This document shows positions 15,571 through 18,646 of a DNA stretch of 64,000 bases, piece after piece; the first letter of the stretch is position 1, and each line of letters begins with the position of its first letter. The stretch is from NCBI RefSeq assembly GCF_000384075.1, contig NZ_KB913025.1, forward strand, positions 2,061,551 through 2,125,550. The letters are read 5' to 3'. The translations under genes were made by a program, and so were the position numbers. The notes under the pieces were generated by a model. The model had not been told where the DNA came from, searched no databases, and saw only the letters and a list, made by a program, of their open reading frames with translations. The DNA comes from Methylovulum miyakonense HT12 (GTDB lineage Bacteria > Pseudomonadota > Gammaproteobacteria > Methylococcales > Methylomonadaceae).

Positions 15571-16110
15571 GCTAGCTTGTTTTGCTCAATCTTTATGCAA
15601 GAAAACTTACAAGTTGTTCAATTTCTCTAGTCCAAACAAACCTTAACATTTAAACAATGGCAATTATCCAATCAAGAGTAAAGTTGATCGCCAGAAAACG
15701 ACCCGTTGCTGTCGTTGGTGTTGTTTTATTCAATAGCTGTCATTAGCTACTGATTTCACGTTTTTTAAAGGCTATGTCACCGTTAGTTGTTGAAAAAATT
15801 TTATGTTCGGCGCAAAGCCTTATTTAATGCGGATTGCGGCTTTCGCTGAAAGCCGCGTCATTTAAGGCTTCCACAATTAACGGTGACATAGCCTTTTTAA
15901 ACGACTTAAATAACTTATGCCTTTTAGATTAATTATGCTGGGGAATAAGAAATTCCTTAAGCTAAAAAACTTGTTGTGGTAAGACAAATTTTGTAATTGG
16001 TGAATGACTATCTAATTATTTGATGGCTTCGCTCAAGATAAAAATGTAGACTGGATATTTTTAAAGACTACCCATAAAAACTTGGTAACTCTGATTTGGA
16101 GTCAAGAATA
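15571..16110. other. AT-rich gene-free stretch holding a palindromic element
   Basis: 540 bp between the permease pair and the caspase-like gene. Base use becomes markedly more AT-rich past 15590 and stays so to about 18600. It contains the inverted-repeat element at 15767-15896. No other gene or RNA is recognised; the promoter of the caspase-like gene should lie in 15900-16095. Confidence 0.5.
15767..15896. repeat. 130 bp MITE-like palindromic element
   Basis: The 24 bp at 15767-15790 are the reverse complement of 15873-15896 with one mismatch (core GGCTATGTCACCGTTA). Nested inside are an imperfect 18 bp pair (15815-15832 with 15853-15870) and a perfect hairpin GCGGCTTTC-GCT-GAAAGCCGC at 15836-15856. 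The whole element could fold into one long hairpin or cruciform. It has no reading frame, which fits a non-autonomous transposable element or a REP-like unit. The flanks (CGTTTTTT on the left, TTTTTAAACG on the right) resemble each other inverted, and I could not define a target duplication. No second copy was noticed in this window. Confidence 0.65.
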
Positions 16111-17427
16111 ATGCCATCCTTATTAAAAAAATATTTTGTTATCGCAATTTTTTTCTTATTAAATTTTTGCATATGTGAAAAGACTATTGGTGATGAAAGC
16201 TCTGATGTTAACGATGATCAAAAAAACGTAGTAGCTTTAATAATTGGCAATAATAAGTATACTAGTCCATTAAACGAGCTTACTAATCCAGAAAAAGATG
16301 CCGATGGCTTTAAGGCTGCATTAGAAAAAATCAATCCCAGAGAAATTTTTTTTTATAAAAACACAACATACCAGGAATTAGCTGAAGCCGTTGCTAAATT
16401 TACGGAAAAATTGAAACCAGACACTGTAGGTGTCGTTTATTACTCGGGACATGGAGCTCAATTGGAAAATGAAAATTATCTCATTCCTGTTGGGGTAAAA
16501 ATCGCAAATAAAAATGATTTAAGATTAAAGGGGTTTGAGTTGAGCAAAATATTGGAATCGATGCAAGAGGCCCAAAATTTATTTAATATTATTTTTTTAG
16601 ATGCATGTCGTGACAGACCATCGAAAGGAACAAAAGGTCTTAGCTCTATATCTACAGGTCTTGCTCCTGTGATTGCTCGTTCTGGGATAATAATTTCTTA
16701 TGCCACAGCCCCTGGATATACTGTTGATGATCTTCCAGAACAAGATAATAGTTTATATACTTGGGCTTTGCTTAAAAACTTTAATTCAGGAGTAGATGTT
16801 GAGAAAATGTTAAAGTGGGTGGGTAGAGACGTTTCTAATAAAAATGAAACTCAAGTACCATGGATGAACTCATCATATTATGGAGAGTATTGTTTCGGAG
16901 GATGTAAAAATATTACTCCACCATCTCAAGCTTCCTCGGATAGCAATTCGGATTTGTATGAAATGATATTACTAACCACAAGAGGAGCTGGTGCTCGTGA
17001 AGCTTTAGAAAAATTAGTAAAAAAAGGAAAAGCTTTGAATAGTGTCACGCTATATTCTGCAGATTTTTCTAACACCTCCGCCAATAACGCCATACTGCCG
17101 TATGCATCTGTAGAATGGTCTAATTTATATCATGCTAACTTTTCATCATCAGACTTTTCTAACGCAAGTTTATTTTGCTCTACTTTAGCTGAAGCCAATT
17201 TTAAGTATTCCAGGTTTGATGGCGCAGACCTAACAGGTGCCGATGTTACTCGCGCAGATTTTACAAATACTAATATTAAAATAGAACAACTGAAAAATAC
17301 TTGTATAGTTTTCGATGTGAATAATGAGTCACCACTTCCTAAGGTTGATTTCCAAGTTGATGAAAGTATGTTTTCTAAATGTAATCCTATGGATCACGGC
17401 ATTAGGAAATGTTTAGAGACAAAGTAG
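16111..17427 (+). CDS. Secreted caspase-like (peptidase C14) protein with pentapeptide repeats
   Basis: 438 residues in four parts. A Sec-type signal or anchor (1-22, LLKKYFVIAIFFLLNF) is followed by a caspase-like fold (about 38-270): VVALIIGNNKYTSPLNELTN, the catalytic His114 in VVYYSGHGAQLENENYLIPV and catalytic Cys166 in IIFLDACRDRPSKG. Both dyad residues are intact, so it should be an active orthocaspase. A short linker leads to a run of pentapeptide repeats (about 320-400: LYHANFSSSDFSNASLF, FDGADLTGADVTRADFTNT). The ATG at 16111 with GGAG 9 nt before it was chosen over an in-frame TTG at 16096. The gene is AT-rich unlike its neighbours, suggesting transfer. Substrate is unknown. Confidence 0.8.
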   Translation: MPSLLKKYFVIAIFFLLNFCICEKTIGDESSDVNDDQKNVVALIIGNNKYTSPLNELTNPEKDADGFKAALEKINPREIFFYKNTTYQELAEAVAKFTEKLKPDTVGVVYYSGHGAQLENENYLIPVGVKIANKNDLRLKGFELSKILESMQEAQNLFNIIFLDACRDRPSKGTKGLSSISTGLAPVIARSGIIISYATAPGYTVDDLPEQDNSLYTWALLKNFNSGVDVEKMLKWVGRDVSNKNETQVPWMNSSYYGEYCFGGCKNITPPSQASSDSNSDLYEMILLTTRGAGAREALEKLVKKGKALNSVTLYSADFSNTSANNAILPYASVEWSNLYHANFSSSDFSNASLFCSTLAEANFKYSRFDGADLTGADVTRADFTNTNIKIEQLKNTCIVFDVNNESPLPKVDFQVDESMFSKCNPMDHGIRKCLETK

Positions 17428-17537
17428 CATTTTAACATATCCATACGTTTGGTGGTTTTTATACGAAGTGAATGAGTAGTTGGTAAGGTAAAAAAATAAG
17501 TAATCATTATTATATATAAATTTTGGAGTGTTAAGTG

Positions 17538-18362
17538 ATGAAAAGACGAGAGTTTTTGAAGTTATCTATGATGGCCCCTTTTATTTTAAAATACACAAGC
17601 GTTTTTGCTAGTACCAATTTCGAACAATTACTGAGTCAATTTGAAAATAATGATGATGAACTATTAGAAAATTCGTGGCAATTTAGAGAAGGACATATAA
17701 TCCAAACAAAAGGCATTGGCACAGGACAGAAATCCACAAGAAAAATATCGGAAACTGCAATAGATATGATCGTAAAACTTGAGGTCGGTGGTAAAAATAG
17801 ATATGAAAAATATTATCAAACCCCTATCTGGCCAAAGTCCAATTCTGGCGTAACAATTGGGATAGGATACGACTTAGGATATGCAGATAAAAATGTCTTT
17901 TACCGAGATTGGTGCAATCGGCTTGAACAACCAGCTTTAAGCACTCTTGAGAAGGTATTGAAAAAAAAAGGAAATGAAGCTAAAGATTCGTTACCTACAG
18001 TAGCCGATGTTGTCAAGGTTTCCTGGGATGCTGCATACGGTCAATTTATTGATTATATTCCATTTGTAACGTATCAAACTGAAAAAACTTTTCCACACTG
18101 CGACGAACTTAGTGCTGATTGTTTAGGAGCACTTGTGTCTCTAGTCTTTAATCGCGGGACAGATCTTGATAAACAAAATAACCGGCGTAAAGAAATGTTA
18201 GACATTCGTAATCTTATGAGAAATCGAAAATTCGAGAACATTCCAGATAGAATTCGTAGTATGAAACGTATTTGGGAAAATAATCCGGATGCTAAAGGGC
18301 TTGTTATAAGACGTGAACTTGAAGCTAAGCTTTTTGAATCGGGTCTTAAATCTATTACATAA
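17538..18362 (+). CDS. Tat-exported lysozyme-like (GH24-type) protein
   Basis: 274 residues. The N-terminus MKRREFLKLSMMAPFIL carries a twin-arginine motif and hydrophobic stretch, so folded export through Tat is expected. From about residue 70 the pattern is that of T4-type lysozymes: Glu82 in IVKLEVGG as likely catalytic acid, GVTIGIGYDLG (104-114) like the T4 TIGIGH loop, then ALVSLVFNRGT and a C-terminal RRELEAKLFESG. The spacing between Glu82 and the TIGIG loop is larger than in T4 lysozyme and the second acidic residue is not obvious, so activity on peptidoglycan is inferred. GGAG lies 9 nt before the ATG. It is 110 bp after the caspase-like gene, same strand and same AT-rich base use. 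Confidence 0.6.
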   Translation: MKRREFLKLSMMAPFILKYTSVFASTNFEQLLSQFENNDDELLENSWQFREGHIIQTKGIGTGQKSTRKISETAIDMIVKLEVGGKNRYEKYYQTPIWPKSNSGVTIGIGYDLGYADKNVFYRDWCNRLEQPALSTLEKVLKKKGNEAKDSLPTVADVVKVSWDAAYGQFIDYIPFVTYQTEKTFPHCDELSADCLGALVSLVFNRGTDLDKQNNRRKEMLDIRNLMRNRKFENIPDRIRSMKRIWENNPDAKGLVIRRELEAKLFESGLKSIT

Positions 18363-18368
18363 CATTAA

Positions 18369-18386
18369 CAGGCTGTTGAAAAACAC
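18369..18386. repeat. Possible transposon-end remnant
   Basis: The 18 bp CAGGCTGTTGAAAAACAC begin 7 bp after the lysozyme-like stop and resemble the terminal sequence of several insertion sequences that start with GGCTGTTGAAAAA. No partner inverted end and no transposase was seen within reach, so this is only a hint that the island boundary lies between here and 18646. The rest of 18363-18646 shows no gene. Confidence 0.2.
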
Positions 18387-18646
18387 AATATATAGTAAAT
18401 TAAACAATATCATTTCACCATCTATAGAAGATAGCCGCTGTAAATCATAGTAAATCAACGGCCTGTTATGAGCTGCTAATGAATGGCCGCCACATAGCAT
18501 ATATTTGTTATTACGGCCAAAGCTTTGAATGTCTTGTTATGGTCGAATGGAGGCATTCAGCCACCTTAAATTTTATAGAGGGCTAACAAGAAGCAAACCT
18601 ATCAATACCGAATAGCGAAAAATCTGGAACGCTATTCCGCCTATCA

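What the first reader, a model, noticed from the sequence alone, without database searches (positions are those of the whole stretch)
15571..18646. Secreted caspase-like protease next to a Tat-exported lysozyme, on an AT-rich island
Seen: two same-strand genes, 110 bp apart, both AT-rich, with signals for export by different routes (Sec and Tat). One is an intact His/Cys orthocaspase with a pentapeptide-repeat tail; the other has a T4-lysozyme-like core. Known: bacterial caspase homologues act in defence and cell-death modules, but those are normally cytoplasmic, and GH24 enzymes attack peptidoglycan. Inferred: a protease-muramidase pair acting in the envelope, for example with the caspase activating or releasing the lysozyme, as a lysis, competition or phage-response module. 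I know of no described system with this pairing.
Basis: partly seen in the sequence, partly recalled or inferred. Interest (0 to 1): 0.75.

Follow-up and report, generated by a model that had tools for sequence, protein, structure and literature searches.

The report
Exported protease paired with wall-cutting enzyme
Two neighbouring bacterial genes make an exported caspase-like protease and a separately exported enzyme that should cut the cell wall; across unrelated bacteria this wall-cutter almost always sits beside an exported protease of one of three unrelated kinds, which suggests a rare, mobile self-lysis switch of a kind we did not find described.

Summary
A Sec-type exported C14 caspase (16111-17427, His/Cys dyad intact, MALT1-like fold) lies 110 bp upstream of a Tat-type exported muramidase (17538-18362). 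The muramidase has a confident AlphaFold model whose best solved match is pesticin, with pesticin-type Glu-Thr-Asp residues. Of 21 Tat-signal homologues found in many proteobacterial families, 18 have a protease gene directly beside them, and all 18 proteases carry an apparent signal peptide. The protease class swaps: caspase C14 (7), TPR-CHAT (3), trypsin-like S1 (8). In six of the seven caspase cases that gene is the only C14 gene in the genome. Close relatives without the N-terminal segment (mostly phage-type lysozymes) had a neighbouring protease in only 1 of 64. A Burkholderiaceae clade lacks the export signal on both partners (12/12). Best explanation: a protease-activated, envelope-located pro-muramidase, analogous to protease-gated nucleases (canu) and bacterial gasdermins, probably a cell-lysis or defence cassette. 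The functional pairing is well supported. Proteolytic activation, the scissile Arg68 and an antiphage role are inferred and untested. I found no published description.

The parts
16111..17427 (+). Exported C14 caspase (paracaspase/orthocaspase-like) with C-terminal pentapeptide repeats, 438 aa; the only C14 gene in the genome
   Evidence: PF00656 E=8e-33; whole-genome search gives one match; model best matches MALT1 paracaspase, E=3e-15; GGAG site before ATG 16111
16111..16185 (+). N-terminal Sec-type signal or anchor segment of the caspase (approximate)
   Evidence: MPSLLKKYFVIAIFFLLNFCIC, hydrophobic maximum 2.75; partner caspases in L023, L026, L029, L040, L052 and L063 carry comparable signals
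16450..16452 (+). Catalytic His codon (YYSGHG)
   Evidence: invariant in alignment A6
16606..16608 (+). Catalytic Cys codon (DACRD)
   Evidence: invariant in alignment A6
17119..17298 (+). Pentapeptide-repeat tail of the caspase (targeting or sensing module; other caspase partners carry other tails, GH19 in L023)
   Evidence: PF00805 E=3e-14 and PF13599; L023 PF00182 E=3e-6
17538..18362 (+). Tat-exported pesticin/T4-type muramidase with N-terminal segment, 274 aa
   Evidence: AF2 mean pLDDT 91.7; pesticin best PDB matches
17544..17549 (+). Twin-arginine (RR) of the Tat signal
   Evidence: RR in 17 of 18 protease-paired exported homologues, TR in L028
17610..17747 (+). N-terminal segment (residues 25-70) between signal and core: candidate pro-segment or docking segment, also present in non-exported protease-paired homologues, absent from most phage-type solo relatives
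   Evidence: alignments; helices 28-37 and 39-47 with pLDDT 83-90, then a weaker linker of about 69
17739..17741 (+). Arg68, candidate scissile residue (S-x-R-x-I-S)
   Evidence: R in 6/7 C14-paired, R/K in 3/3 exported CHAT-paired, 1/8 S1-paired members; not phylogenetically independent
17781..17783 (+). Catalytic Glu82 (pesticin E178 position)
   Evidence: invariant in 57 sequences
17853..17855 (+). Catalytic Thr106 (pesticin T201 position)
   Evidence: invariant in 57 sequences
17871..17873 (+). Catalytic Asp112 (pesticin D207 position)
   Evidence: invariant in 57 sequences

Best explanation
The two genes form a functional cassette: an exported protease plus an exported pro-muramidase. The muramidase folds in the cytoplasm, where it has no substrate, and leaves by Tat. 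The protease leaves by Sec, unfolded and therefore inactive, so the two meet only in the periplasm. On an envelope trigger the caspase becomes active and removes or displaces the muramidase's N-terminal segment, perhaps by cutting after Arg68. The freed pesticin-type core then hydrolyses peptidoglycan and lyses the producing cell, or, if released, its neighbours. Shown here by sequence and modelling: the pairing, apparent export of both proteins, the muramidase fold and catalytic residues, the caspase fold and dyad, the swapping of protease class, and the matched export state. Inferred: proteolytic activation, the cut site, the trigger, and a lysis or defence role.
For: Pairing: a protease gene lies directly beside 18 of 21 Tat-signal homologues, against 1 of 64 signal-less stand-alone relatives with at least 3 kb of flank on both sides. 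In six of seven C14-paired genomes the adjacent caspase is the only C14 gene in the genome. Partner class swaps: C14 (7), TPR-CHAT (3), S1 (8) by Pfam. Sisters L023 (C14) and L024 (CHAT) join at 100/99 support, and the tree needs at least 4 partner changes. Gene order also varies (upstream, downstream, divergent, convergent), so the linkage has been rebuilt repeatedly. Compartments match: all 18 partners have a signal-like N-terminus, while in a Burkholderiaceae clade neither the muramidase nor its CHAT partner has one, 12/12. The N-terminal segment is shared by exported and non-exported protease-paired forms and missing from most phage-type solo forms. Other peptidoglycan hydrolases in the same arrangement: Tat-CHAP + S1 overlapping by 4 bp in L158; a caspase fused to GH19 in L023. 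Precedent: caspase- or trypsin-gated pro-nucleases (PMC12799240).
Against: No cleavage was shown. The Arg68 correlation is nominal (Fisher p=0.010 for C14 vs S1; p=0.003 for C14+CHAT vs S1), but only 2 phylogenetically independent contrasts exist, the column was picked after seeing the alignment, and non-exported CHAT-paired members lack the Arg (0/12). Three Tat members (Rhodospirillales clade L027, L030, L048) have the segment but no protease within 4 kb. Protease detection in the 1/64 control used profiles built from the partners found. The window's pair is not in an obvious defence island.
Confidence: 0.55

Rival explanations
1. The protease is the restraint, not the trigger: it degrades or inactivates the exported muramidase until stress stops it, as in a toxin-antidote pair.
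For: No small lysozyme-inhibitor or other immunity gene was seen to recur beside the pairs, so something else must keep the muramidase harmless. A degrading protease would explain why protease class is interchangeable and why the Arg column is not universal.
Against: A conserved N-terminal segment with a variable linker and sequence-specific protease families (C14, CHAT) fits limited cleavage better than degradation; known protease-effector pairs are activating (PMC12799240).
Confidence: 0.15
2. Both proteins are weapons or digestive enzymes released against other cells, the protease attacking proteins and the muramidase the wall, without one acting on the other.
For: Both appear exported; pesticin-type cores occur in bacteriocins; the L023 caspase carries a GH19 domain and L025 and L037 have further wall-lytic genes nearby.
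Against: No receptor-binding or translocation domain and no recurrent immunity gene; it does not explain why a non-exported clade keeps the same pairing (12/12) or why the N-terminal segment tracks protease pairing.
Confidence: 0.15
3. Prophage-derived lysis genes: an exported endolysin with a protease that times host lysis or works as a spanin-like factor.
For: Core relatives are widespread in viral contigs (452 matches); L158 and L173 lie in predicted proviruses beside Bro-N and an integrase, L046 near an integrase.
Against: Phage-type relatives mostly lack the N-terminal segment and a protease neighbour (1/64); no phage genes were recognised next to the window's pair or in the other plasmid and chromosomal stretches examined.
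Confidence: 0.1
4. Ordinary cell-wall remodelling pair, proteolysis tuning a housekeeping muramidase.
For: Proteolytic control of wall hydrolases is common (general knowledge); one Tat clade without a protease neighbour keeps similar flanking ORFs in L027, L030 and L048.
Against: Extremely patchy: 2 of 201 genomes of the window's family have any detectable homologue, the other one with a different N-terminus; 0 to 1 further match per 130-190 genomes in four other families.
Confidence: 0.05

Closest known systems
Canu (caspase-nuclease) and trypsin-gated pro-nucleases of Hachiman, AVAST and Lamassu (Tuck et al., Science 2025, PMC12799240)
   Same: An effector enzyme encoded beside a protease; the protease family swaps (trypsin, caspase) while the effector family is kept; the effector is a proenzyme opened by site-specific cleavage
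   Different: Here the effector is a peptidoglycan muramidase, both proteins appear exported by different routes, and no sensor or helicase component is fused or co-encoded in the window; cleavage is unproven
Bacterial gasdermins with adjacent proteases
   Same: A death effector next to a caspase-like, CHAT or trypsin-like protease that activates it (from general knowledge)
   Different: Gasdermins are cytosolic membrane-pore formers; this is a Tat-exported muramidase
NucA-trypsin conflict systems with EAD1-recruited lysozyme or papain effectors (Kaur et al. 2020 System 3, PMC7159879)
   Same: Alphaproteobacterial trypsin-containing systems predicted to include a lysozyme-like effector attacking peptidoglycan; fused relatives here (L042, L060, L077, L101) resemble these
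   Different: Those are multi-component systems centred on a nuclease; the window's form is a two-gene exported pair with no nuclease, EAD1 or STAND protein
Pesticin (Yersinia pestis bacteriocin) and phage GH24 endolysins
   Same: Muramidase fold and Glu-Thr-Asp arrangement (T-to-D spacing of 6 identical)
   Different: No receptor-binding or translocation domain; a Tat signal and an N-terminal segment instead; a protease gene alongside
TPR-CHAT protease Craspase (Csx29-Csx30)
   Same: A TPR-CHAT protease with an adjacent protein substrate (from general knowledge)
   Different: RNA-triggered, cytoplasmic, CRISPR-linked

Membership tests
Pesticin/GH24-type muramidase | lysozyme fold of the pesticin kind | tested here: met
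   AF2 pLDDT 91.7; Foldseek best 11 hits all pesticin, prob 1.00, E 1e-5 to 3e-4, TM about 0.49 over 214 columns
Pesticin/GH24-type muramidase | catalytic Glu-Thr-Asp | tested here: met
   E82, T106, D112 invariant in 57 sequences
Pesticin/GH24-type muramidase | single-sequence match over the curated Pfam cut-off | tested here: not met
   PF00959 17.3 bits (cut-off 22.3), PF16754 15.8 bits (cut-off 25.8); so assigned by structure and profile, not by Pfam membership
Pesticin/GH24-type muramidase | hydrolysis of peptidoglycan | not testable with these tools
   needs enzyme assay
Peptidase family C14 (caspase) | C14 domain over curated cut-off with intact His/Cys dyad | tested here: met
   114.5 bits against 21.4; H and C invariant
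Peptidase family C14 (caspase) | caspase/paracaspase fold | tested here: met
   MALT1 best match E=3e-15; C-terminal part of the model unreliable
Peptidase family C14 (caspase) | Arg/Lys P1 specificity of para/meta/orthocaspases | not tested
   specificity pocket not analysed
Tat substrate | twin-arginine motif and weakly hydrophobic h-region within the first residues | tested here: met
   motif and hydropathy inspection only, no trained predictor available; RR in 17/18 paired homologues
Canu / protease-gated nuclease systems | MBL-type nuclease effector | tested here: not met
   effector is a pesticin-type muramidase
Canu / protease-gated nuclease systems | effector family shared by several protease classes as neighbours | tested here: met
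   C14, CHAT, S1
Canu / protease-gated nuclease systems | effector is a proenzyme cut by its partner | not testable with these tools
   candidate segment and Arg68 only
Bacterial gasdermin system | gasdermin pore-forming protein | tested here: not met
   no such Pfam match in either protein
Kaur et al. 2020 System 3 (NucA-trypsin-EAD1) | NucA nuclease plus trypsin, EAD1 adaptor | tested here: not met
   neither in the two window genes
Known defence system in PADLOC | full system call | tested here: not met
   only a generic caspase model, E=7e-10; nothing for the muramidase

The most novel reading that the evidence does not exclude
An undescribed class of envelope-located suicide or defence cassettes: a Sec-exported protease (caspase, CHAT or trypsin-like) held apart from a Tat-exported pro-form of a wall hydrolase (muramidase, or CHAP as in L158) until both reach the periplasm, with protease and hydrolase each swappable. 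It would be a cell-wall counterpart of gasdermin and caspase-nuclease systems.
Probability: 0.5. Interest if true: 0.85.

Novelty: new variant of a known kind. Interest (0 to 1): 0.74.

Why it matters
Described bacterial caspase, CHAT and trypsin death modules act inside the cell on DNA, membranes or proteins. A recurrently assembled exported protease with an exported wall hydrolase would place such a cascade in the periplasm, where phage entry, phage lysis enzymes, conjugation or envelope damage could be sensed. The use of two export routes would be a simple way to keep trigger and weapon apart. The pair is small (two genes), so the idea is directly testable.

Tried and rejected
(1) Chance neighbours: rejected by the homologue survey. 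(2) Inactive lysozyme relic: rejected, catalytic residues invariant. (3) Arg68 as a proven cut site: rejected as proof; nominal association only, two independent contrasts, absent in the non-exported CHAT-paired clade; kept as a lead. The two members found later (L158, L173) have Thr and S1 partners, as the pattern predicted, but belong to the same S1 clade. (4) Prospective enlargement: searches of Alphaproteobacteria and four families found too few new exported members. (5) Degenerate scans with the single window protein found nothing; the alignment-based scan worked. (6) PADLOC, NCBIfam and PHROGs gave no system. (8) Full-length caspase model: C-terminal part unreliable because the alignment has 8 rows. 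(10) Ten literature searches found no description of this pairing; the library holds open-licence papers only.
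Full report
WHAT IS IN THE WINDOW. The two genes are real and as described. The caspase ORF is listed from 16096, but the ATG at 16111 has a GGAG ribosome site 9 nt upstream; it ends at 17427 (438 aa). It has a C14 domain (PF00656, E=8e-33) and pentapeptide repeats near the C-terminus. Its model, good only over the caspase domain, matches the MALT1 paracaspase best (E=3e-15). It is the only C14 gene in this 4.69-Mb genome. 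The second gene (ATG 17538-18362, 274 aa) begins MKRREFLKLS, a Tat-type motif. Its own sequence falls under the Pfam cut-offs for Phage_lysozyme and Pesticin, so the lysozyme claim needed more. A 57-row alignment gave a model of mean pLDDT 91.7 whose eleven significant PDB matches are all pesticin. Glu82, Thr106 and Asp112 are invariant and correspond by spacing to pesticin E178, T201 and D207, residues whose mutants are among those same PDB entries. The genes sit in a 33.8% GC island between ABC-exporter-type genes.

IS THE PAIR CONSERVED? The single-protein scans found nothing, but tblastn on plasmids gave three full-length homologues, and an alignment-based scan of about 85,000 species genomes gave 80 loci. 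A later viral-contig scan gave two more full-length members. Among full-length homologues with a Tat-like start, 18 have a protease gene directly beside them (Pfam identities). C14 caspase: window, L023 Sphingomonas MAG, L026 Caulobacter, L029 Lysobacter, L040 Silvimonas, L052 Bradyrhizobium, L063 Sphingomonas asaccharolytica. TPR-CHAT: L004 Pseudomonas putida plasmid (reading frame split across two ORFs, full CHAT score not reached), L024 Rubrivivax, L028 Mesorhizobium. Trypsin-like S1: L005 (weak Pfam score), L006 (the same record as L039), L025, L037, L038, L046 (weak), L158, L173 (weak). Three further Tat members from Rhodospirillales (L027, L030, L048, one clade) have no protease within 4 kb, so the count is 18 of 21.

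CONTROLS. (a) Stand-alone relatives of at most 345 aa without the Tat start, with at least 3 kb of flank on both sides, had a C14, CHAT or S1 gene within 4 kb in 1 of 64 cases (Fisher p about 1e-13). The detection profiles were built from the partners found, so the control may under-detect divergent proteases; related sequences are not independent. (b) Whole-genome counts of C14: in six of the seven C14-paired genomes the adjacent gene is the only C14 gene (with muramidase positions). A naive chance estimate for six immediate adjacencies is about 1e-20; this ignores relatedness and is only an order of magnitude.

PARTNER SWAPPING AND COMPARTMENT MATCHING. On a tree built from the muramidase core only, the exported set needs at least four changes of partner class; the sister pair L023 (C14) and L024 (CHAT) is supported 100/99. 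Gene order also changes: protease upstream (window, L006, L024, L038), downstream (L004, L023, L025, L026, L029, L037, L040, L052, L063, L158), divergent (L005, L046, L173), convergent (L028). All 18 partner proteases have a hydrophobic, signal-like N-terminus, judged by inspection and hydropathy, in a few cases from an internal Met. A related Burkholderiaceae clade (12 loci) keeps the muramidase next to a CHAT protein, but neither partner has a signal. It still carries the N-terminal motif (F-x-x-LL ... RE/ER) that precedes the core in the exported members, while most phage-type solo members begin at or near the core. So this segment travels with protease pairing rather than with export.

THE SAME LOGIC WITH OTHER PARTS. 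L158 carries, about 2.7 kb downstream of its muramidase gene, a Tat-type CHAP hydrolase overlapping an S1 protease by 4 bp. The L023 caspase has a C-terminal GH19 domain. Other, non-exported relatives are built into intracellular conflict-type proteins: TIR-muramidase beside TPR-S/trypsin (L042); a TIR-nSTAND1 protein containing the muramidase beside a muramidase-TPR-S-trypsin protein (L101); muramidase-papain fusions (L068, L077). These resemble the lysozyme and papain effectors that Kaur et al. predicted in NucA-trypsin systems (PMC7159879).

HOW IT MOST LIKELY WORKS. Shown by sequence and model: pairing, apparent export of both, enzyme folds and catalytic residues. Inferred: the muramidase is a proenzyme restrained by residues 25-70; the protease, exported unfolded by Sec, meets it only in the periplasm; when triggered it cuts the segment and the core attacks peptidoglycan. 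A candidate cut site is Arg68: R in 6 of 7 C14-paired, R/K in 3 of 3 exported CHAT-paired, 1 of 8 S1-paired and 0 of 3 unpaired Tat members (Fisher p=0.010 for C14 vs S1 and 0.003 for C14+CHAT vs S1). I do not rely on it: the column was chosen after seeing the alignment, only two phylogenetically independent contrasts exist, and the non-exported CHAT-paired clade has no Arg there. The trigger is unknown. Mobile settings recur: plasmids (L004-L006), integrases near L046 and L173, Bro-N in L158, resolvase near L037, transposases around L006, and the family is very sparse. That fits a horizontally moving conflict or defence cassette better than housekeeping, but no antiphage evidence exists.

KNOWN OR NEW? 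The closest experimentally studied logic is the protease-gated pro-nuclease, including caspase-nuclease canu loci (PMC12799240); bacterial gasdermins are similar in logic. The window's pair is not a member of either: the effector is a wall hydrolase and both partners appear exported. I found no description of it in ten literature searches of an open-licence library, which is not proof of absence. I therefore rate it a new variant of a known kind, with the pairing well supported and the mechanism at about even odds.

Noticed in passing
window 15762-15901: A MITE-like element with 33-nt inverted arms (88% complementary), about 28 near-full copies in the genome; pairs of matching ends about 1.06 kb apart elsewhere (e.g. 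G000 C1:3013643-3014708, 4338219-4339289) suggest a parent insertion sequence.
   Followed up: partly
L158 9591-11479: A second cassette of the same design: Tat-type CHAP hydrolase (PF05257) overlapping by 4 bp an S1 protease gene, about 2.7 kb downstream of the muramidase gene.
   Followed up: partly
L023 3941-5398: Exported caspase with a C-terminal GH19 (chitinase/lysozyme-type) domain, so a protease and a wall hydrolase in one protein.
   Followed up: partly
L101 1962-11629: TIR-nSTAND1 protein containing the same muramidase domain next to a muramidase-TPR-S-trypsin protein; L042 has TIR-muramidase beside TPR-S-trypsin.
   Followed up: no
L077 6893-9751 and L068 6881-9790: Muramidase fused to a papain-family (C1) domain, a fourth protease class linked to this muramidase family.
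   Followed up: no
L031-L036, L043, L044, L051, L057, L059, L064: Burkholderiaceae clade of signal-less muramidases, each next to a CHAT protein (some with TPR-S; L033 also has a TIR gene nearby), a likely intracellular version.
   Followed up: partly
L027, L030, L048: Rhodospirillales Tat-type muramidases with a longer N-terminal insert, similar flanking ORFs, and no protease neighbour.
   Followed up: no
L029, L040, L063 caspase C-termini: These three caspases share a C-terminal region of about 110 residues (LDIxWC...NYxSAFVC) that no Pfam match covered, perhaps a sensor.
   Followed up: no
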